The notes under the pieces are model-generated. The model was not told where the DNA came from, did not search any database, and saw only the letters and a program-made list of their open reading frames with translations. A DNA stretch of 53,868 nt from Lysobacteraceae bacterium (lineage in GTDB: Bacteria; Pseudomonadota; Gammaproteobacteria; Xanthomonadales; Rhodanobacteraceae): the NCBI GenBank assembly GCA_028866435.1, contig JAGWIC010000009.1, positions 1 through 53,868 of the forward strand, written 5' to 3'. A program made the translations under genes and the position numbers. This document shows, in pieces, positions 40,285 through 51,136 of the stretch (position 1 is the first letter of the stretch; each line of letters starts with the position of its first letter).

Positions 40285-42159
40285 TCAGTCGCCGGACGAC
40301 TGTTCGCTGAAACGCCGGTAGAGGGTGCTGCGGCTGACGCCGAGCTTGCGTGCGGCGGCGGCGACGTTGCCCTGGCAGCTGGCGATCGCCACGTCGATCG
40401 CCCGTTGTTCGATGTCGTGCAGGTTTCCGGCAAGCCGGGTCGGTGCGGGCGCCTGCGTGAGTTGCGGGCTTCTCAGTTCGGCGGGCAGATCGTCGCGGGT
40501 CAGGGTGGAGCCCTTTTCGCCGAGCGCGAGGAAGCCGCGCAGCAGCCCGACCAGCTGGCGCAGGTTGCCGTGCCAGGGCATGGCCGAGAGCTCCTCGAGC
40601 AGGTCGGGGTGCAGCTTGATCGGAATCTGTTCGCCGCCCAGCGCATGCCATAGCTGCTGGATCAGCGAAGGCAGGTTGTCGTGTTCCCGCAGGGGCGGCA
40701 GCCGCAGCGTTGCCTGCGCGATGCGGTAATACAGGTCGGCGCGGAATTCGCCACGGGCCACCGCGCCGGCGAGGTCGCGATGGGTGGCGGCGATGACGGT
40801 GATGTCGATGGCGTGGGAGCGGCCGCCGCCGAGCGGGGTGACCTCGCGCTCCTGCAGCACGCGCAACAGCCGGCTCTGCATGCCCAGCGGCATGTCGCCG
40901 AGTTCGTCCAGGAACAGGGTGCCGCCGTCGGCCTCGCGCAACAGTCCGGGGGCGCCTTCGCGCCGTGCGCCGGTGAATGCGCCCGGCAGGTAGCCGAACA
41001 GTTCCGATTCGATCAGGTGTTCCGGCAGCGCGGCGCAGTTCACCGCGACGAAGGCCGCTGCGGCACGCTGGCTGCGCTTGTGCAGCTCGCGCGCGACCAC
41101 CTCCTTGCCGGTGCCGGTCTCCCCCTGCAGCAGCAGCGGGATGTCCGCATCGAGCAGGCGCACGCTGCGATTGATCTCCGCATCCAGTGCCGGCGAGAAG
41201 ACCGGCTCGGGCGAACGTTTCGCGCGCGTCTGCGCATGGCGCGGTACACGGCTCGAAATGCTGTTGTGGCTGAGCGCGTCGCGCTTGGCGTGCAGCATCT
41301 CCCCGCTCTGGCAGCGCATGCTGGTGAGGCTGCCCGGCCGTGGCAGTGCCGAGGCGAACAATTCGTCGTAGCGGCTCTTGCCCAGTTCGCCCCAGTCGAC
41401 GCCGAGCAGGCGCAGCGCATGCCGGTTGGCGGCGACCAGCCGGTGCGCCTCGAAGACCAGCATGCCCTCCCGCGCGGTGCCGAGCAGGTCGGGGTCGGGC
41501 TGGATGCGCACGATGTCGGCACCCTCGAAGTGGTGCTCGAACAGGCGATGCTCGATCTGCTCGACCGCCAGTTGCACCATGCCCAGCGCATGCAGGTGAT
41601 GCATCGAGGCCTCGCCTGACAGGTCGAGCACGCCGACCACTTCGCCGCGCGGGTCGAAGATCGGCGAGGCCGAGCAGCTCAGCACGCGGTGCGGCGCATG
41701 ATAGTGCTCGCCGCCGCGCACCTCGATCGCGCGACGCTCGACCAGTGCCGTGCCGATCGCGTTGGTGCCGCTGACGGATTCTCCCCAGGGCGAGCCGGCG
41801 CGCAGCGAGACGCGCGCGGCCTTGTCGAGGAAGCTGGCATTGCCGAGCGCGTCGAGAATGAAGCCGTCCGGCGCGGTCAGGATGACGATGCTGCCGGCCT
41901 GGTTGGCGCTGGCGTAAAGCGTCTGCAGTTCCGGCCGGCACAGTCGGCGCAAGGCTTCGTACTGCTCCTGCATCTGGTTGAGCGCATGCCGCTCCACCGG
42001 CATCACGTCGGGGCAGGCGTCCGCCAGCAAACCCTGCTGGCGGCAGCGTCGCCACGAGGCAAGGATGTTGTCCGGCACCAGTCCGCGCGGCTCCGCGCCG
42101 CTGTCGAAGAAGCTCCGCCGTGCGGTGTTTATCGATTCGGTCAGGCCAGGTTGGCGCAT
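40285..42159 (-). CDS. AcoR-type sigma-54-dependent activator
   Basis: The protein is 624 residues from ATG 42159. An upstream in-frame ATG lies inside a dyad operator and the further extension has no coding character, so it was rejected. The N-terminal GAF-like sensor (about 60-300) contains GSPWGESVSGTNAIGTAL, typical of the AcoR group. The central AAA+ domain has Walker A GETGTGKE, the sigma-54 contact GAFTGA, and Walker B GGTLFLDE. The C-terminal Fis helix-turn-helix ends AAARKLGVSRSTLYRR. Such proteins sense small metabolites and open sigma-54 promoters. A -24/-12 promoter lies divergently before the aldehyde dehydrogenase gene. Confidence 0.94.
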   Translation of the reverse strand: MRQPGLTESINTARRSFFDSGAEPRGLVPDNILASWRRCRQQGLLADACPDVMPVERHALNQMQEQYEALRRLCRPELQTLYASANQAGSIVILTAPDGFILDALGNASFLDKAARVSLRAGSPWGESVSGTNAIGTALVERRAIEVRGGEHYHAPHRVLSCSASPIFDPRGEVVGVLDLSGEASMHHLHALGMVQLAVEQIEHRLFEHHFEGADIVRIQPDPDLLGTAREGMLVFEAHRLVAANRHALRLLGVDWGELGKSRYDELFASALPRPGSLTSMRCQSGEMLHAKRDALSHNSISSRVPRHAQTRAKRSPEPVFSPALDAEINRSVRLLDADIPLLLQGETGTGKEVVARELHKRSQRAAAAFVAVNCAALPEHLIESELFGYLPGAFTGARREGAPGLLREADGGTLFLDELGDMPLGMQSRLLRVLQEREVTPLGGGRSHAIDITVIAATHRDLAGAVARGEFRADLYYRIAQATLRLPPLREHDNLPSLIQQLWHALGGEQIPIKLHPDLLEELSAMPWHGNLRQLVGLLRGFLALGEKGSTLTRDDLPAELRSPQLTQAPAPTRLAGNLHDIEQRAIDVAIASCQGNVAAAARKLGVSRSTLYRRFSEQSSGD

Positions 42160-42171
42160 CGGCGGTCTCGA

Positions 42172-42190
42172 GTGTCGCATTCTGCGACAC
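42172..42190. promoter_or_regulatory. Dyad operator 1 upstream of the activator gene
   Basis: GTGTCGCATTCTGCGACAC is a perfect 8-bp inverted repeat with a 3-bp centre. It lies 13 bp upstream of the activator ATG and about 160 bp from the -24/-12 promoter, a normal distance for an enhancer site. Confidence 0.75.
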
Positions 42191-42202
42191 CTTTCCAGGG
42201 GG

Positions 42203-42221
42203 GTGTCTCGATACAGAACAC
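42203..42221. promoter_or_regulatory. Dyad operator 2 upstream of the activator gene
   Basis: GTGTCTCGATACAGAACAC shares length, ends (GTGTC...ACAC) and partial symmetry with the first dyad. Centre-to-centre distance is 31 bp, about three helical turns, which would put both on one DNA face. Confidence 0.6.
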
Positions 42222-42259
42222 ATCTTTCGACGAAGTGCAACCCTGCCGCCCGAAGACTG

Positions 42260-42279
42260 TTGCTGCGTCGCCGCAGCAA
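42260..42279. promoter_or_regulatory. Inverted repeat TTGCTGCG-N4-CGCAGCAA
   Basis: A perfect 8-bp inverted repeat with a 4-nt loop lies between the dyads and the sigma-54 promoter. On the plus strand it is followed by an A-rich stretch. It could be another protein site or a hairpin; it does not match the 19-bp dyads. Confidence 0.4.
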
Positions 42280-42351
42280 AAAATAAATTCCCATGGCGAG
42301 CCGAATTTGACGTCGTGGCACGGTGCAGCAATTTCGTCATCCCTGCCGGTC

Positions 42352-42410: not shown

Positions 42411-43931
<1,521 letters not shown>

Positions 43932-43967: not shown

Positions 43968-44186
43968 CTCCGGTCGATGCATCGCGCGTGGCCATGCCTG
44001 GCCGTGGCAGCGGGCTCCAGCGGCAGCAAGTTCTTCTTCGACAACTGCATGCGCGGATCGGCTCCGGTCCGCGTCTCGGCGGGCCGTGGGCAAGGCGGTT
44101 CGTGACAGGGCAGGGCGGTCACATCCAGCGGGGCATGTCAGCCACCGGGCAGACGGCGCTTCGTTTCATCCATCATGGGGAAAAAA

Positions 44187-45386
44187 ATGAAGATATCGAC
44201 AACACGCATCGTGGCGCGCCGACGCCTGACCGGTTTTGCAAAGCTTACGGGAGGCGTGGCCCTGTTCGGCGCCGTGGCCTGTCCGCTGGCCGCCAGCGCC
44301 GCCTCGTTCAGTGGCGACAACTGGACGGTGGACCTCAGCGGTTTCGCCAACGCGTACTACACCACGGTCAGCTGCAACGGCGCGGCGGTGGGCGGTCCCG
44401 CACTGGCGGGCGAGGCTCTGGGCTGCGGTGGCCAGCAAAACCGCTCCAGCATCGGCAACGGATTGCTGCCGGACGCGCTGACGACCAAGTTCACCACCCG
44501 GCAGGAGGGCATCGACATCGCGGCACAGGTCAGCCTGATGAGCAGCATCGCCACCTCGAATGCGCTTTCCGCGAACAGCGGTGTCGACGTGCGGCAGGCC
44601 TTTTTCACCCTCGGTACGCCGGACTTCGGCACGGTCAAGCTCGGTCGCGACTACGGCGTGTTCGGTTCCAACGCGATCCTCGGCGACATGACCCTGTTCG
44701 GCGCCGGCGCGCCGATCCAGGCGACCCAGCGCGGGCGCGTCACGCTCGGCCATATCGGCGCCGGTTACACCTACCTGGGCAGTTATGGCCAGATCGTCTA
44801 CAGCACCCCGGGAACCACCGGCCTGAGCTTCACCGGCGGCGTGTTCAGCCCGGTCGACAATACCGGTGCCTACGATTCGCGTTCGGCGCCGCAGGTGCAG
44901 GTGCAGCTGGCCTATGCGGCAGGTGGCTTCAAGGGCTGGCTCGGCGCGAAGTCGCAGCGCTTCTACGCGGTCGCTGGCTCGGCGGCGCTGCCAGCCAGCT
45001 TCACCATGTTCGCCGCCGAGGCAGGCGCTTCCTACACCCTCGGAAAATTCGGCGTGCTGGCGAACGTGCAGGAAGGCCGCGGCATCGGCATCCTGACCGA
45101 TGGCGACCAGGGCAACGCGAAAGGCGTCAACTACCTGCTGCAGGGTACCTACCAGGTGACCGACAAGCTGAAGCTCGGCCTGAGCGGCGGCGAGAGCCGC
45201 AACCGCAGCGACCTGGTCAGCGACGCTAACTTCAAGTCCAACAGCAACGTGACCGGCGGCGCGTATTACGCGCTGACCAAGAGCGTGACCTTGAGCCTGG
45301 AACTGAGCCAGACCCGTTCCAGGGACTATGCCGGCAACACCGCGCGCATGAACGGCGTTGCGCTGGGTGGCATCCTGTTTTTCTAG
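44187..45386 (+). CDS. Outer-membrane porin
   Basis: The protein is 399 residues. ATG 44187 is preferred over ATG 44175 because GGGG lies 6 nt before it. A long signal peptide ends near CPLAASAA. The mature part has alternating amphipathic beta-strands (NWTVDLSGFANAYY, FGTVKLGRDYGVFGSNAIL, FKGWLGAKSQRFYAVAG) and ends in Phe, as expected for a trimeric general porin. It lies directly before the PQQ dehydrogenase gene on the same strand (70-bp gap), so it may admit alcohols or cofactors; this is inference. Confidence 0.85.
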   Translation: MKISTTRIVARRRLTGFAKLTGGVALFGAVACPLAASAASFSGDNWTVDLSGFANAYYTTVSCNGAAVGGPALAGEALGCGGQQNRSSIGNGLLPDALTTKFTTRQEGIDIAAQVSLMSSIATSNALSANSGVDVRQAFFTLGTPDFGTVKLGRDYGVFGSNAILGDMTLFGAGAPIQATQRGRVTLGHIGAGYTYLGSYGQIVYSTPGTTGLSFTGGVFSPVDNTGAYDSRSAPQVQVQLAYAAGGFKGWLGAKSQRFYAVAGSAALPASFTMFAAEAGASYTLGKFGVLANVQEGRGIGILTDGDQGNAKGVNYLLQGTYQVTDKLKLGLSGGESRNRSDLVSDANFKSNSNVTGGAYYALTKSVTLSLELSQTRSRDYAGNTARMNGVALGGILFF

Positions 45387-45456: not shown

Positions 45457-47154
45457 GTGAAACCACTGAACATCTTGCGCAAGACCAGCCTTTTCGTCGC
45501 CTTGACCGTGCTTGCCGGCGGTGCGCTGGCGACCGATTTTTCACCCGTCACCACGGCGCGCCTGTCCGACGCCGCCCACGACAACGGCTGGCTGATGTAC
45601 CGGCGCGACTATGCCAGCAACGGCTATGCGCCCTTCAAGCAGATCAACACCGGCAACGTCAGCGGCCTGAAGCAGGTCTGGGACTACAAGACCGGCTTCC
45701 AGCAGGGACATGAGGCTCCGGCGATCGTCAACGGCGATTACCTCTACATCACCACGCCGAAGGACGAGCTGATCGCGTTCCAGGCCAGCACCGGCAAGCA
45801 GCTGTGGAAGTACCAGCACGACCTGTCCCAGGTGGGCCTGAAGACGGTGTGCTGCGACGTGGTCAACCGTGGCGTGGCGTTGTACGGCGACAACGTCTAC
45901 ATGGCGACGCTGGACAACTACGTGGTGGCGCTGGACGGCCGTACCGGCAAGGTGGTCTGGAAGAAGCAACTGATCCCGGCCGACGTCGGCTATGCGATGA
46001 CGCTCGCGCCGCTGGTGGTCAAGGGCAAGGTGATCGTCGGCGAGTCCGGTGGCGAATACGGCGCGCGCGGCTTCATCGAGGCGCTGGACGCCAGGACCGG
46101 CAAGGAGGTGTGGAAGCGGTACACGATCCCGGCGCCGAACGAACCCGGTGGCAAGACCTGGCCCAAGGGCGCCTACAAGACCGGCGGTGGCGGCGCCTGG
46201 CTGACCGGCAGTTACGACGCGGCCACCGACACGCTGTTCTGGGGTGTCGGCAACCCCGGCCCCTGGCTGGCCACGCTGCGCCCGGGCGACAACCTGTACA
46301 CCGATTCGGTGATCGCCATGAATCCGGCCAACGGCAAGATCAAGTGGCATTTCCAGTACACCCCGAACGACACCTGGGACTACGACGGCACCAACGAGAC
46401 GGTGCTCACCGACATCAACTACCAGGGCAAGGCGTACAAGGCCATCGTCAGCGCCAGTCGCAATGGCTGGTTCTATGCGATCAATCGCCTGAACGGCAAG
46501 CTGATCTACATGAAGAAGTTCGCCACCGCCACCTCGGTCACCGGCGAGAAGGACGGCAAGGTCACTACCGACCCGGCCCTGCGCCCAACCGTGGACAAGC
46601 AGGTGCTGACCTGCCCCAGCTTCCTCGGCGGCAAGAACTGGTGGCCGATCTCGGTGGATCCGCAGACCCACCTGGCCTACGTGCCGACCATGCACACCTG
46701 CATGACGATCAAGGGCACCACGGTGAGCTACAAGGCCGGCCTGCCGTTCCTCGGCGAATCGTTCAAGGTGGTCGCCGACCCCGCGTTCAAGGGGCAGTGG
46801 GGCGAAGTGCAGGCGATCGACGTCAACACCGGCGAGCAGGTGTGGAACCATCCGTCGGCGCTGCCGTGGAACAGCGGCATGCTCAGCACGGCTGGCGGCC
46901 TGGTCTTCTCGGGCGGCGCGGATGGCCATCTGTATGCGTTCGATGCGAAGTCCGGCAAGGTGCTGTGGAAGAGCCCCGAGCTGAGCTCCGGTATCGAGAG
47001 CGTGCCCAGCACCTGGAAGGTCGACGGCAAGCAATACGTCAGCGTCTACGCGGGCTGGGGCGGTGCCACGCCGATCTGGGGTGGCGACATGGCCTCCGAC
47101 CCGGCCGTCACCAATATTCCTCTGGGTGGCCACCTGTACGTGTTCGCGCTTTGA
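45457..47154 (+). CDS. PQQ-dependent alcohol dehydrogenase with lanthanide-type metal motif
   Basis: The protein is 565 residues. Start GTG 45457 is supported by GGGAGAAAGAA directly upstream and by an immediate signal peptide (to about residue 25, GGALA). The eight-bladed propeller of quinoprotein dehydrogenases is evident, with W-motifs such as TGKQLWKYQ and TGKVVWKKQ. The vicinal disulfide Cys132-Cys133, a Glu in GGEYGARG, and the catalytic Asp308 in DTWDYDGTNE are present. Asp310, two residues after the catalytic Asp, is the extra metal ligand seen in lanthanide enzymes (XoxF, PedH/ExaF). Calcium enzymes usually have Ala, Ser or Thr there. It should oxidise primary alcohols in the periplasm and give electrons to a c-type cytochrome; one is fused to the next gene's product. 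Confidence 0.93.
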   Translation: MKPLNILRKTSLFVALTVLAGGALATDFSPVTTARLSDAAHDNGWLMYRRDYASNGYAPFKQINTGNVSGLKQVWDYKTGFQQGHEAPAIVNGDYLYITTPKDELIAFQASTGKQLWKYQHDLSQVGLKTVCCDVVNRGVALYGDNVYMATLDNYVVALDGRTGKVVWKKQLIPADVGYAMTLAPLVVKGKVIVGESGGEYGARGFIEALDARTGKEVWKRYTIPAPNEPGGKTWPKGAYKTGGGGAWLTGSYDAATDTLFWGVGNPGPWLATLRPGDNLYTDSVIAMNPANGKIKWHFQYTPNDTWDYDGTNETVLTDINYQGKAYKAIVSASRNGWFYAINRLNGKLIYMKKFATATSVTGEKDGKVTTDPALRPTVDKQVLTCPSFLGGKNWWPISVDPQTHLAYVPTMHTCMTIKGTTVSYKAGLPFLGESFKVVADPAFKGQWGEVQAIDVNTGEQVWNHPSALPWNSGMLSTAGGLVFSGGADGHLYAFDAKSGKVLWKSPELSSGIESVPSTWKVDGKQYVSVYAGWGGATPIWGGDMASDPAVTNIPLGGHLYVFAL

Positions 47155-47170: not shown

Positions 47171-48424
47171 ATGAGCAGGTCTACAAGAAAAGCCGGGTTG
47201 AAACTGTGCCTCATCGGACTGGCCGCCGTACTTATGTACGGCGGCACCGCCGCGGCGGGCGTGCTTTCGGTATGCATCGACAAGAGCAGCCCGGGTGCAA
47301 GCATGGACTACGGCGTGGCCCGTGCCGTTGCCGCGCAGCAGGGAAATACGCTGAAGGTCCACGAGTTCGATGGCAGTGGCAGCGGCGACGACGGCTTCCC
47401 CGCCAGGCAGTTCAACAAACTTGCCCACGACAGTTGTGCACTGGTGCTTGGCTATCCGATCGACGCCGACGAGAAATCGGTGTTGCCCGGTCTGCACGCC
47501 ACGGCGCCGTATGGCCACACCGGTTTCGTGCTGGTCACGGCGAAGGGCAGCAAGGCCACCGACCTCGATCAGCTCCCCAGCCACACCAGCGTCGCGGTGA
47601 CCTACCAGACCACGCCCAACCTGTACTTCATCGATCACCCGCAGCTGCAGGCCGATGTCCATTTGAGCAACGAGGACGCGCTCAAGGCACTGGAGCAGAA
47701 CAAGGTGCACGCGGCGATGCTGTGGCAGCCGACCGTGGTGAAGTACCTGTCGCAACGACGCGAGGCGGGTCGCTTCGCCTACCACGAACTGCACGAGCCG
47801 CATGCGCAGTTCAACCTGGTGGCGTTGTACGACAGCGGGAATGCGTCGGTGGCGGCGGCCTTCGACAAGTCGATCGCCAGCATGACGGCATCGGGTGAAC
47901 TGGCGCGGATCCTCGCGTTGTATGCGGAGACCGGGCCGGCGCAGCCGATGGTCCATGTGGCGGTTCACGGCCGACCCGGGTCGGCGTGGTGGCGGCCGCG
48001 GACGCGGCGGACCGCGGACCGCAGCTGCGGTTCGGCGGAACTCAAGCGCAGGCATGCCACGGCATCCAGGGCTCACGCCGCTGCATTGCCGAAGCTGTTC
48101 ACCGATGCGCAGGCGACCGAGGGCAAGGAGAAATTTCTCGCCATCTGCGCACGATGCCATGGTCCCGCGCTGGAGGGGCGGGTCGGTCCCGCGCTGAAGG
48201 GGCCGAATTTCGCCTCGGCGAAAGCGGACTTCCACGTCGGCGATGTCTTCACCATCGTTTCGCAGAACATGCCGGCGACCGCGCCCGGCACCCTGGAACA
48301 CCAGGACTACGTGAAGATCATGGCCTTCCTGCTGCGGGAAAATGGCTATCCTGCAGGAAAGAAGGCGCTGACTTACGATGAGGCGAAGGCCTCGAAGGTG
48401 GAACTGCGCTATCACGGCACCTGA
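47171..48424 (+). CDS. XoxJ/MxaJ-like periplasmic binding domain fused to a XoxG-like cytochrome c
   Basis: The protein is 417 residues. GGAGGAG lies 7 nt before the ATG and a signal peptide spans residues 1-29. Residues about 30-260 resemble family 3 solute-binding proteins of the MxaJ/XoxJ kind (VLSVCIDKSSPGASMDYGVA, CALVLGYPIDADEK, VAVTYQTTPNLYF, AAMLWQPTVVKYL). Residues about 310-417 are a class I cytochrome c with one heme site, Cys326-Ala-Arg-Cys329-His330, and a probable axial Met367 in QNMPATAPG. XoxJ binds or activates the apo-dehydrogenase; XoxG accepts its electrons. In methylotrophs they are separate genes; here one chain would do both. The Arg-rich linker (about 265-310) looks odd and may reflect compensating frameshifts. 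It lies 16 bp after the dehydrogenase gene, so the two are one operon. Confidence 0.88.
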   Translation: MSRSTRKAGLKLCLIGLAAVLMYGGTAAAGVLSVCIDKSSPGASMDYGVARAVAAQQGNTLKVHEFDGSGSGDDGFPARQFNKLAHDSCALVLGYPIDADEKSVLPGLHATAPYGHTGFVLVTAKGSKATDLDQLPSHTSVAVTYQTTPNLYFIDHPQLQADVHLSNEDALKALEQNKVHAAMLWQPTVVKYLSQRREAGRFAYHELHEPHAQFNLVALYDSGNASVAAAFDKSIASMTASGELARILALYAETGPAQPMVHVAVHGRPGSAWWRPRTRRTADRSCGSAELKRRHATASRAHAAALPKLFTDAQATEGKEKFLAICARCHGPALEGRVGPALKGPNFASAKADFHVGDVFTIVSQNMPATAPGTLEHQDYVKIMAFLLRENGYPAGKKALTYDEAKASKVELRYHGT

Positions 48425-48448: not shown

Positions 48449-48483
48449 CCGCGGGGTGCAGCGTCATGACCTGCACTCCGCGG
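48449..48483 (+). terminator. Hairpin between the fusion gene and pqqU: terminator or attenuator
   Basis: CCGCGGGGTGCAG (48449-48461) pairs with CTGCACTCCGCGG (48471-48483) with one G-T pair and a 9-nt loop. TTCTTTTTG follows 7 nt after the stem. The distance to the T-run is longer than ideal, so reduced read-through rather than full termination is plausible. Confidence 0.6.
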
Positions 48484-48516
48484 TATGACTTCTTTTTGTA
48501 CCAGCGGGAGTTTCAT

Positions 48517-50730
48517 ATGAAGGACACGGGAGGAAACGCACAAAAGGCAGGCGAGGGCGCTTTCCGCAAGCCACGAGCCGAGGCTTGCGGCACGCTGCTT
48601 CTGCTTTGCCTCGGGCTGGCCGCGCAGGCAGCCCGGGCCAGCGAGCCGTCACCGGCTGCGCCCCAGGACCCGGCGGCCGGCCAGGCGCCGGTGACGTTGT
48701 CGACGGTGCAGGTCAATGCCAGCCGCCTCGACCTGTCGCCGTTCGACGTTCCCGCCTCGCTGAGCGTCGTCCAGGTGGCGCCCTACCAGGCCGGCCAGCC
48801 CGGCGTGAATCTCTCGGAGGGCCTGGTCGGCGTACCGGGCATCCTCGCCCGCGATCGCCAGAACTATGCCCAGGACGAGCAGATCTCGATCCGCGGCTTC
48901 GGCTCCCGCGCCACCTTCGGCGTGCGCAGCATCCGCCTGTACGTGGACGGCATTCCGGCCACCCTGCCGGACGGCCAGGGCCAGGTGTCGCATTTCAATC
49001 TCGACAGCGCCGAACGGATCGAGGTGCTGCGCGGGCCGTTCTCCGTGCTGTACGGCAACGCGGCCGGCGGCGTGGTGCAGATCTGGAGCGCGGACGGCAC
49101 GCCCACGCCGTTGACCACGCTGGGCGTGAGTGCCGGCAGCAACGACAGTTTCCGCTACAGCGCCGACACCCGCGGAACCATCGGGCCGGTCGACTACAAC
49201 ATTGCCGGGTCGTTGTTCCTGTCGGGTGGTTACCGCCGGCACAGCCGGGTCCATCGCGAGTCGGACAACGCCAAGTTCGGCATCGACCTGGGCCACCAGA
49301 AGAAACTCACCATCGTCTTGAACCGGCTCAACCAGCCGCTGTCGCAGGATCCGCTGGGCCTGACCCAGGCGCAGGTCGATGCCGATCCGCGCCAGGCGAC
49401 CGCCGTGGCCGGGGAGTACAACACGCGCAAAAGCATCCTGCAGAACCAGCTCGGCGCGATCTTCGAGCAGCCGTTGAGCGACGACGACCAGCTGCGGGCG
49501 ATGGCCTACTACGGCCATCGAAGCATCGTCCAGTACCTGTCCATTCCGACCTTCGCCCAGGCCAGTCCGCTGTCGTCGGGCGGGGTGATCGACCTCGGCA
49601 CCAAATACGGCGGTGCCGATGCGCGCTGGACCCATCGCGGCCAGCTGGGCGGGCGCGATTACGAGTTCGTGCTGGGGGCCAGCGGCGATGCGCAGGCCCA
49701 GCACCGGCTCGGCTACAACGACTTCGTCGGCAGCACCCTCGGTGTGATGGGCCAGTTGCGGCGCAACGAGGACGACAACGTCAACAGCGTCGACGAATAC
49801 GCGCAGTGGTATTGGCACTTTGCCGACCGCTGGTCGTTGTTGCTGGGTGCGCGGCACGACGAGGTGCGCTTCAGCTCGCACGATTTCTACGTCACGCCGC
49901 GCAACCCGGACAACAGCGGCGGGGTCAGCTACGGCGGCACCACACCGGTGGCCGGGCTGGACTTCCGCCCCAGCGGGCATCTGCGCCTGTACGCCAGCTA
50001 CGGCAAGGGCTTCGAGACGCCGAGCTTCAACGAGCTGGGCTATCGCAGCGACGGCCTGCCGGGGCTGGCCCTGAACCTGCGGCCGGCACGCAGCAGCAAC
50101 ATGGAGCTGGGCGCGAAGTGGAAGATCACCCCGATGCTTGAGTTCGATGCGGCGGCCTTCCGTTCGAATACACACGACGAGCTGGCCATCGAAAGCAACT
50201 CGAGCGGCCGTTCCACCTACCAGAACGTGGGCGATACGCGGCGGCAGGGTTTCGAGTCGTCATTGACCGGCAAGCTTGCCGAAGACTGGCAGATCAGTGC
50301 CGGCGTCACCCACCTGCGGGCGCAATTCCTGAGCGCCTTCAATACCTGCTTCAGCGCCCCATGCCTGGTGCCCAAGCTGCCGGTGGCGGCGGGTTCGCGG
50401 ATGCCGGGCGTGCCTGAAAACTACGGCTCGCTGCGAGTGCAGCATGGCGCCGACCTGGGCTGGCACGAAGGCATCGACCTGACCGGGGTGGGCTCGGTCA
50501 CGGTCAACGATACCGACACCCAGCGTGCGGCTGGCTATGGCCTGATCGGCCTGGATACCAGCTACACGTTCGCCCTTGGCGGCAGTTCACGCCTTCAGCT
50601 GAGTGCGCGCGTGGACAACCTGGCCGACCGCCGCTATATCGGCTCGGTCATCGTCAACGACGGCAACGGGCGCTATTTCGAGCCCGGCCCGGACCGTACC
50701 TGGATGCTCGGCGCGCATCTGACCTTCTGA
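48517..50730 (+). CDS. pqqU: TonB-dependent receptor, PqqU (YncD) type: probable PQQ importer
   Basis: The protein is 737 residues. ATG 48517 has GGGAG 6 nt upstream, and a signal segment follows (LLLLCLGLAAQAARA). The plug domain contains ARDRQNYAQDEQISIRGFGS and LYVDGIPATLPDGQGQ; the barrel ends in Phe. These blocks, together with RYIGSVIVNDGNGRYFEPGP near the end, closely match E. coli YncD as I remember it. YncD has been shown to import pyrroloquinoline quinone and renamed PqqU. Placement 92 bp after a PQQ dehydrogenase unit, with no pqq synthesis genes in the window, supports PQQ uptake here. Energy would come from TonB-ExbBD encoded elsewhere. Confidence 0.88.
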   Translation: MKDTGGNAQKAGEGAFRKPRAEACGTLLLLCLGLAAQAARASEPSPAAPQDPAAGQAPVTLSTVQVNASRLDLSPFDVPASLSVVQVAPYQAGQPGVNLSEGLVGVPGILARDRQNYAQDEQISIRGFGSRATFGVRSIRLYVDGIPATLPDGQGQVSHFNLDSAERIEVLRGPFSVLYGNAAGGVVQIWSADGTPTPLTTLGVSAGSNDSFRYSADTRGTIGPVDYNIAGSLFLSGGYRRHSRVHRESDNAKFGIDLGHQKKLTIVLNRLNQPLSQDPLGLTQAQVDADPRQATAVAGEYNTRKSILQNQLGAIFEQPLSDDDQLRAMAYYGHRSIVQYLSIPTFAQASPLSSGGVIDLGTKYGGADARWTHRGQLGGRDYEFVLGASGDAQAQHRLGYNDFVGSTLGVMGQLRRNEDDNVNSVDEYAQWYWHFADRWSLLLGARHDEVRFSSHDFYVTPRNPDNSGGVSYGGTTPVAGLDFRPSGHLRLYASYGKGFETPSFNELGYRSDGLPGLALNLRPARSSNMELGAKWKITPMLEFDAAAFRSNTHDELAIESNSSGRSTYQNVGDTRRQGFESSLTGKLAEDWQISAGVTHLRAQFLSAFNTCFSAPCLVPKLPVAAGSRMPGVPENYGSLRVQHGADLGWHEGIDLTGVGSVTVNDTDTQRAAGYGLIGLDTSYTFALGGSSRLQLSARVDNLADRRYIGSVIVNDGNGRYFEPGPDRTWMLGAHLTF

Positions 50731-50752: not shown

Positions 50753-51136
50753 ATGCCTGATCTGGAACCTGTTGCGAAAGTGCTCGCCACCGCCTCGGCC
50801 GAGGCGTTGATCGAGCGCCTGCGTGACCAGCATGGCGCCTTGCTTTTCCACCAGTCGGGCGGTTGCTGCGACGGCTCCTCGCCGATGTGCTACCCGCAGG
50901 ACGACTTCATCGTCGGCGACCGCGACGTGAAGCTGGGCGAAATCGCCGGCGCGCCGTTCTACATGACGCCCTCGCAGTACGAATACTGGAAGCACACGCA
51001 ACTGATCATCGACGTGGTCGAGGGCCGCGGCGGCATGTTTTCGCTGGAGAACGGCCAGGGCGTGCGCTTCCTCACCCGTTCGCGCCTTTTCAGCGACGAC
51101 GAAATCGCGCAACTGATGCAGCAGGGGCGCTTCTGA
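50753..51136 (+). CDS. DUF779 family protein
   Basis: The protein is 127 residues. The conserved Cys block GGCCDGSSPMCYP and the segment FYMTPSQYEYWKHTQLIIDV define DUF779. Genes of this family commonly sit beside acetaldehyde or alcohol dehydrogenase genes, which fits this locus. It is probably a small metal- or ligand-binding protein of the cytoplasm; its function is not established. It lies 22 bp after pqqU and is likely in the same transcript. Confidence 0.9.
   Translation: MPDLEPVAKVLATASAEALIERLRDQHGALLFHQSGGCCDGSSPMCYPQDDFIVGDRDVKLGEIAGAPFYMTPSQYEYWKHTQLIIDVVEGRGGMFSLENGQGVRFLTRSRLFSDDEIAQLMQQGRF

What the first reader, a model, noticed from the sequence alone, without database searches (positions are those of the whole stretch)
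47171..48424. Fusion of a XoxJ-like binding protein with a XoxG-like cytochrome
In methylotrophs xoxF, xoxG and xoxJ are separate. Here one exported chain carries both a periplasmic-binding fold and a CARCH cytochrome, directly after the dehydrogenase gene. It could dock to the dehydrogenase through the binding domain and take electrons through the heme, a compact design I do not know to be described.
Basis: partly seen in the sequence, partly recalled or inferred. Interest (0 to 1): 0.76.

Follow-up and report, generated by a model that had tools for sequence, protein, structure and literature searches.

The report
Fused binding domain and cytochrome partner
A bacterium makes one exported protein that joins a helper domain to an electron-accepting cytochrome, encoded right behind the alcohol-oxidising enzyme it probably serves; the general trick was already known from a volcanic methane-eater, but this version sits in a gene cluster that seems to import the enzyme's cofactor from outside.

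Summary
Window 47171-48424 is one 417-residue exported chain: a XoxJ/MxaJ-like periplasmic-binding domain (about 30-256), an unconserved linker and a one-heme cytochrome c (about 307-417, CARCH), 16 bases behind a PQQ alcohol dehydrogenase gene. It is no reading error: 17 of 197 genomes of the family carry it in one frame, as do Beijerinckia mobilis and, diverged, a genome of another order. The dehydrogenase is directly upstream in 25 of 25 loci with upstream DNA. The claim of novelty fails: XoxG:J fusions (cytochrome cGJ) are in print for Methylacidiphilum. This one differs: the dehydrogenase is nearest a PedH-type ethanol dehydrogenase, the cytochrome is far below the MoxG cut-off, and the next gene is a PqqU-like receptor with PqqU's signature residues, while 17 of 19 fusion genomes lack pqqC, as do 188 of 197 in the family. 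Best reading: docking or maturation domain plus electron acceptor for a predicted lanthanide-dependent dehydrogenase that runs on scavenged PQQ. New variant of a known kind; function untested.

The parts
47171..48424 (+). J-cytochrome fusion protein, 417 aa
47157..47163 (+). Likely ribosome-binding site GGAGGAG, between the dehydrogenase stop and the fusion start
   Evidence: sequence; inference
47258..47938 (+). XoxJ/MxaJ-like periplasmic-binding domain (residues about 30-256); C35, C89 and W185 in 22 of 22 members, P187 in 21 of 22
47939..48088 (+). Unconserved linker (residues about 257-306)
   Evidence: pLDDT under 50 at 265-288
48089..48421 (+). Class I cytochrome c domain (residues about 307-417)
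48146..48160 (+). Heme motif CARCH (C326, C329, H330 invariant in 22 of 22)
48269..48271 (+). Met367, invariant in 22 of 22, candidate distal heme ligand (M384 is also invariant)
   Evidence: ligand role is inference
45457..47154 (+). PQQ alcohol dehydrogenase, best solved match 6zcw (quinoprotein ethanol dehydrogenase, PedH by recall); WDYD motif, adjacent Cys pair (GTG start inferred)
48466..50730 (+). PqqU-like TonB-dependent receptor (predicted PQQ importer)
50753..51136 (+). DUF779 protein; a relative lies within the fetched stretch of 24 of 27 fusion loci (one of them a partial match)
42411..43931 (+). Acetaldehyde dehydrogenase ExaC (954.5 bits, cut-off 900)
44175..45386 (+). Exported protein I read as porin-like (no Pfam or NCBIfam match), recurrent in the clusters
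   Evidence: the name is inference
40285..42321 (-). Sigma-54-dependent regulator, divergent (below all curated cut-offs listed)

Best explanation
The gene encodes a dedicated periplasmic partner of the PQQ alcohol dehydrogenase next to it. The N-terminal J-like domain docks on the dehydrogenase (as an assembly or activation factor, as proposed for XoxJ and MxaJ), and the C-terminal cytochrome, on a flexible tether of about 50 residues, takes electrons from reduced PQQ and passes them to the respiratory chain. The dehydrogenase is probably lanthanide-dependent and ethanol-type, feeding acetaldehyde to ExaC. Since most carriers lack pqqC, its PQQ must come from outside, most likely through the PqqU-like receptor encoded next. 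Shown: domains, fusion, conservation, neighbourhood, residues, no pqqC match. Inferred: docking, electron transfer, lanthanide use, substrate, PQQ uptake.
For: Both domains in one conserved frame. N domain closer to six XoxJ-type sequences (hhalign E 6e-12 over 206 columns) than to six E. coli amino-acid binding proteins (E 6e-7 over 145 columns, C-terminal part only); 20 of 22 members hit TIGR03871, 3 of 22 TIGR01096, at E up to 0.01. C35 and C89 (22 of 22) and the W-x-P site (W 22, P 21 of 22) match cysteines and W-x-P invariant in the XoxJ-type alignments; XoxJ 6onp and MxaJ 5sv6 keep all of them, MxaJ 9ism the cysteines but not the W. Dehydrogenase directly upstream in 25 of 25, all with WDYD and CC. 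Among the cytochrome's nearest matches are N-terminal domains of PQQ-propeller proteins (38-40% identical; Pfam on two). Receptor: best solved match is PqqU, E 5e-158; aromatic/Arg/Arg signature in 19 of 19 aligned; 23 of 24 fusion genomes encode such a receptor. No pqqC match in 17 of 19.
Against: No biochemistry. The J-like domain is far below the curated XoxJ cut-off; solved amino-acid binding proteins score better than XoxJ or MxaJ with the N-domain profile in HMMER and as well or slightly better in the fold comparison. The cytochrome is below the MoxG cut-off, and across members other cytochrome families match as often. Lack of pqqC is the family norm (188 of 197), so it is not tied to the fusion. 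In 7 of 27 loci no such receptor lies in the fetched stretch (L089 ends at a contig edge). Beijerinckia and the diverged G732 have dehydrogenase plus fusion without it; G732 has none at the cut-off used.
Confidence: 0.7

Rival explanations
1. The binding domain is a true ligand sensor or solute binder (for an amino acid or a small alcohol-derived compound) that only happens to be fused to a cytochrome.
For: The N-domain profile matches amino-acid binding proteins in HMMER better than XoxJ or MxaJ, and the fold is shared.
Against: The Asp invariant in 6 of 6 E. coli amino-acid binders is replaced by the W of the W-x-P site in the profile alignment. The recurrent neighbours compared (eight window proteins) include no inner-membrane permease or ATPase; other neighbours were not compared. 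XoxJ-type sequences are nearer by profile-profile comparison.
Confidence: 0.12
2. The binding domain binds PQQ itself, as PqqT does in Methylobacterium extorquens, and hands imported PQQ to the dehydrogenase; the cytochrome then serves as acceptor.
For: PqqU-like receptor gene next door; no pqqC match in 17 of 19 carriers; a periplasmic PQQ-binding protein PqqT exists (passage of PMC12124388).
Against: No comparison with PqqT was made here. In the passages that I read, J proteins are proposed to help PQQ insertion by binding the apo-enzyme, not to bind PQQ. Beijerinckia and G732 carry the pair without a receptor nearby.
Confidence: 0.2
3. The fusion is a degenerate or misread pair of genes: assembly error or frameshift joining xoxJ and a cytochrome gene.
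For: The linker is arginine-rich and unconserved in this copy, and one relative (G825) has the halves in different frames.
Against: Same single frame in 17 of 197 family genomes (own included), 15 of 398 in the order (own included) and Beijerinckia; both domains align throughout.
Confidence: 0.02

Closest known systems
Cytochrome cGJ (XoxG:J fusion) of Methylacidiphilum fumariolicum SolV and relatives
   Same: J protein and cytochrome c on one chain, in the gene cluster of a lanthanide-type PQQ dehydrogenase; reported as that enzyme's electron acceptor (title of Versantvoort 2019, seen as a reference)
   Different: There XoxF methanol dehydrogenase in a methanotroph with pqq genes and a separate xoxJ in the cluster; here an ethanol-type enzyme, no separate xoxJ seen beside it, and a PqqU-like receptor. 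Domain order of cGJ and kinship of its cytochrome were not checked (sequence not obtained).
Separate XoxJ / MxaJ / PedG (e.g. 6onp, 5sv6, 9ism)
   Same: Fold, cysteine pair, and for 6onp and 5sv6 the W-x-P site; neighbour of a PQQ dehydrogenase
   Different: Fused; the NLPYS-G-GFEN stretch of XoxJ is shortened (gap); below curated cut-offs
XoxG / MxaG / PedF (ExaB) cytochromes
   Same: One-heme class I cytochrome beside a PQQ dehydrogenase
   Different: Below the MoxG cut-off; PedF model hit by only 4 of 22 members; nearest matches found include N-terminal domains of PQQ-propeller proteins and single cytochromes of unknown role
ped / exa ethanol oxidation clusters of Pseudomonas
   Same: PQQ alcohol dehydrogenase, acceptor cytochrome, J-like protein, NAD-dependent aldehyde dehydrogenase (passages of PMC12997753)
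   Different: pedF and pedG are separate genes there; here one chain, with a PqqU-like receptor in the cluster and no pqqC match in the genome
PqqU (E. coli PQQ importer)
   Same: Full-length similarity and 8 of 10 mapped binding residues identical, plus R536; Y99 is F, which the authors accept; Q310 is L
   Different: 650 bits against the NCBIfam PqqU cut-off of 1200; encoded in a PQQ alcohol dehydrogenase cluster

Membership tests
XoxJ/MxaJ (J proteins) | Type-2 periplasmic-binding fold | tested here: met
XoxJ/MxaJ (J proteins) | Curated TIGR03871 cut-off, 212 bits | tested here: not met
   22.6 bits; so it is called J-like, not a TIGR03871 member
XoxJ/MxaJ (J proteins) | Nearer to XoxJ than to amino-acid binding proteins | tested here: inconclusive
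   Yes by hhalign and NCBIfam counts; no by HMMER against the PDB
XoxJ/MxaJ (J proteins) | Cysteine pair and W-x-P site seen in the XoxJ-type alignments | tested here: met
   C 22 and 22 of 22, W 22 of 22, P 21 of 22; XoxJ-type alignments; MxaJ 9ism lacks the W
XoxJ/MxaJ (J proteins) | Encoded beside a PQQ alcohol dehydrogenase | tested here: met
   25 of 25 loci with upstream DNA; 2 more of 27 end at the contig edge
XoxG/MxaG cytochrome cL | Curated TIGR03872 cut-off, 148 bits | tested here: not met
   27.2 bits
Cytochrome cGJ-type fusion | J-type domain and cytochrome c on one chain | tested here: met
Cytochrome cGJ-type fusion | XoxF dehydrogenase and separate xoxJ in the same cluster | tested here: not met
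   Best solved match 6zcw 401 bits against 316 for 6dam, named XoxF; the separate XoxJ-type gene lies on another contig
Cytochrome cGJ-type fusion | Accepts electrons from its dehydrogenase | not testable with these tools
   needs protein work
PedH/ExaF-type lanthanide alcohol dehydrogenase | Extra Asp (WDxD) and adjacent Cys pair | tested here: met
   25 of 25; 6zcw shows WDFD and CC. That this Asp is the lanthanide ligand, and that 6zcw is PedH, are recalled; speaks only of a conserved Asp
PedH/ExaF-type lanthanide alcohol dehydrogenase | Activity depends on a lanthanide | not testable with these tools
   needs an assay
PqqU | Aromatic at 99, R304, R365 (signature of PMC12124388) | tested here: met
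   F151, R352, R414 in the window; 19 of 19 aligned receptors
PqqU | NCBIfam NF041535 cut-off, 1200 bits | tested here: not met
   650 bits

The most novel reading that the evidence does not exclude
One chain handles both ends of an enzyme's life: its J-like domain helps load scavenged PQQ (and metal), arriving through the neighbouring receptor, into the apo-dehydrogenase, then stays on as the tether that presents the cytochrome. The cluster would be a self-contained 'import the cofactor, mature the enzyme, drain its electrons' unit for bacteria that cannot make PQQ.
Probability: 0.2. Interest if true: 0.7.

Novelty: new variant of a known kind. Interest (0 to 1): 0.42.

Why it matters
Several roles have been proposed for J proteins (maturation, interaction of dehydrogenase and cytochrome, regulation; passage). 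A family in which a J-like domain is fused to the acceptor cytochrome, in hosts most of which lack pqqC, and in 7 of 19 of which no separate XoxJ-type hit was found, gives a simple system: add PQQ from outside, delete or split the fusion, and ask whether the domain is needed for loading, for electron transfer, or for both. It also extends the known J-cytochrome fusion from Methylacidiphilum to Rhodanobacter, Dyella, Luteibacter and Beijerinckia.

Tried and rejected
Frameshift or chance fusion: rejected by conservation. A first AlphaFold2 run with 6 close sequences failed (mean pLDDT 39.8) and was not used; the second with 31 rows, including three separate XoxJ-type and two separate cytochrome sequences, gave 84.5. 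The Foldseek list and VIA list are filled by the binding domain, so the fold of the cytochrome part was not compared. A single-sequence scan of genome contigs found no relative; the alignment scan found 13 loci. The Versantvoort 2019, Keltjens 2014 and Featherston 2019 papers are not held: I know them only as cited in other papers, so the domain order of cGJ is not stated. Whether the fusion of this clade is in print: searches listed no paper that I could see to describe it in Rhodanobacter or Dyella, but I saw only the listings and selected passages. The correlation of dehydrogenase and fusion identities (Spearman 0.84, 210 pairs from 21 loci) was set aside, since shared ancestry alone can give it. 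XoxJ-type sequences and E. coli amino-acid binders are themselves closer to each other (hhalign E 1.8e-17) than the fusion's domain is to either, so kinship within this superfamily is a matter of degree.

Papers: PMC6688271, PMC8170126, PMC8546591, PMC8779874, PMC8498564, PMC7391723, PMC12997753, PMC11845868, PMC5623727: passages only. PMC12124388: outline with abstract, sections 10 and 11, passages.

Full report
What is there. The frame 47171-48424 encodes 417 residues without an inner stop. Its ATG lies 16 bases behind the stop of a PQQ dehydrogenase gene, with GGAGGAG between them. The start reads as a Sec signal peptide by eye. Pfam finds a cytochrome (PF13442, 34 bits, cut-off 27) at 313-387, and only a sub-threshold SBP_bac_3 match at 111-251. 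NCBIfam gives TIGR03871 (quinoprotein-associated binding protein) and TIGR03872 (MoxG), both far below their cut-offs.

The fusion is real. Of 60 relatives (own genome included) 14 have some match, and 6 (own included) carry the whole protein in one frame, the five others at 59-66% identity (alignment). In the order, 22 of 398 genomes match at E 1e-10: 15 (own included) with both domains and 7 with the cytochrome only. In the family, 20 of 197 match at E 1e-30: 17 (own included) with both domains in one frame, two partial (G864, G880) and one with the halves in different frames (G825). In the phylum sample, 6 of 398 match at E 1e-15: the own genome, one diverged full fusion (G732) and four with the cytochrome only. 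The 13 loci with record titles include Rhodanobacter, Dyella, Luteibacter and Beijerinckia mobilis.

Is it a J domain? Profile-profile comparison gives E 6.2e-12 over 206 columns to six separate XoxJ-type sequences, against 5.6e-7 over 145 columns, C-terminal part only, for six E. coli amino-acid binders. Three of the six XoxJ-type sequences (L060, L062, L063) pass the TIGR03871 cut-off; the other three (L064, L065, L096) score 196-203 of 212 bits. Of 22 members, 20 hit TIGR03871 and 3 TIGR01096. C35 and C89 are invariant and align with cysteines of XoxJ and both MxaJ structures; W185-x-P187 aligns with W-x-P in XoxJ 6onp and MxaJ 5sv6, while MxaJ 9ism has F. Against this, HMMER with the N-domain profile ranks amino-acid binders (best E 2.3e-7) above MxaJ (3.9e-4) and XoxJ (0.0085). 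I call it J-like and do not claim membership in the curated family.

The cytochrome. It is not XoxG by the curated MoxG model (27.2 of 147.8 bits); over the 22 members a bc1-type and a c550 model match as often or more often (22 each, MoxG 21, PedF 4). In the first relatives search its nearest partial matches (38-40% identity) were the N-terminal domains of proteins that continue into a PQQ propeller (Pfam on L007 and L049, two of the five listed). Single cytochromes of alike sequence occur too (L069, L070). So this type of cytochrome is, in some proteins, joined directly to a quinoprotein propeller.

The neighbourhood. 27 distinct fusion loci were compared, the frame-split G825 among them. 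The PQQ dehydrogenase is directly upstream in all 25 that have upstream DNA. A receptor at least 49% identical (rounded) to the window's lies in the fetched stretch in 20 of 27 (two pieces in L018), and a DUF779 match in 24 of 27 (partial in L031). ExaC-type aldehyde dehydrogenase, a divergent sigma-54 regulator and an exported porin-like protein recur. The dehydrogenase passes TIGR03075 (590.7 bits, cut-off 480). Its best solved match is 6zcw, 'Quinoprotein ethanol dehydrogenase' (401 bits; PedH of P. putida by recall), then 1kv9 (374), 1flg (372), and 6dam, named XoxF (316). WDYD and CC occur in 25 of 25. The aldehyde dehydrogenase passes the ExaC cut-off. This points to ethanol-type alcohol oxidation with a lanthanide; substrate and metal are inference.

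PQQ supply. The receptor's best solved match is PqqU (E 4.8e-158). Of ten PqqU residues mapped, eight are identical; Y99 is F and Q310 is L; R536 is R. The signature that the PqqU authors used (aromatic 99, R304, R365; PMC12124388 section 10) holds in 19 of 19 aligned receptors. 23 of 24 fusion genomes searched encode such a receptor at 50% identity or more. PqqC is found in 2 of 19 fusion genomes, 1 of the 16 that are at least 90% complete, and PqqE over its cut-off in the same 2. The control: PqqC is in only 9 of 197 family genomes, so lacking PQQ synthesis is the family norm and not a mark of the fusion. Still, the enzyme must get PQQ from somewhere else. The own genome is 89.4% complete, so absence there alone would be weak.

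A second system. The same genome has a separate set on another contig: the end of a PQQ dehydrogenase, a XoxJ-type protein (196 bits) and a separate cytochrome with two heme motifs. A separate TIGR03871-type hit of 189 bits or more exists in 12 of 19 fusion genomes (4 over the curated cut-off); in the other 7 there is no hit or only the fusion's own domain.

Mechanism. Best supported: the J-like domain docks on, and perhaps helps to activate, the dehydrogenase; the tethered cytochrome takes the electrons. Passages on J proteins propose activation and help with PQQ or metal insertion. Beijerinckia and G732 show only dehydrogenase plus fusion of the eight proteins compared, apart from a weak (24%) receptor match in G732, which suggests that this pair is the working unit and the importer an addition.

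Novelty. A J-cytochrome fusion is in print: 'Cytochrome c1 protein fused with XoxJ', xoxGJ, in SolV (PMC5623727), and cytochrome cGJ. What seems new is the clade: an ethanol-type enzyme, another cytochrome type by the curated models, other bacteria, and a PqqU-like receptor in the same cluster. I found no description of it in the searches named under Tried and rejected.

Noticed in passing
window 48466-50730: TonB-dependent receptor with the PqqU signature residues, encoded directly behind the fusion: a predicted PQQ importer inside an alcohol-oxidation cluster.
   Followed up: yes
L096 1-2236 (same genome, contig C89): Separate set: PQQ dehydrogenase end, XoxJ-type protein (545-1420) and a cytochrome with two heme motifs (1424-2236).
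   Followed up: partly
L060, L062, L063 (ORFs of 585, 653 and 646 aa): XoxJ-type domains (over the TIGR03871 cut-off) followed by ankyrin repeats on one chain (Pfam Ank_2; Pfam lists no binding-domain match there). Whether this is in print was not searched.
   Followed up: partly
L007, L008, L015, L049, L050: Proteins with a cytochrome domain of the same type near the start; in L007 and L049 Pfam finds a PQQ propeller behind it.
   Followed up: partly
L092 (G825): The two halves of the fusion lie in different frames; sequencing error or real break not decided.
   Followed up: no
L018 4675-6756 (G029): The PqqU-like receptor is interrupted by one stop codon, in one of the two fusion genomes that do have pqqC and pqqE.
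   Followed up: no
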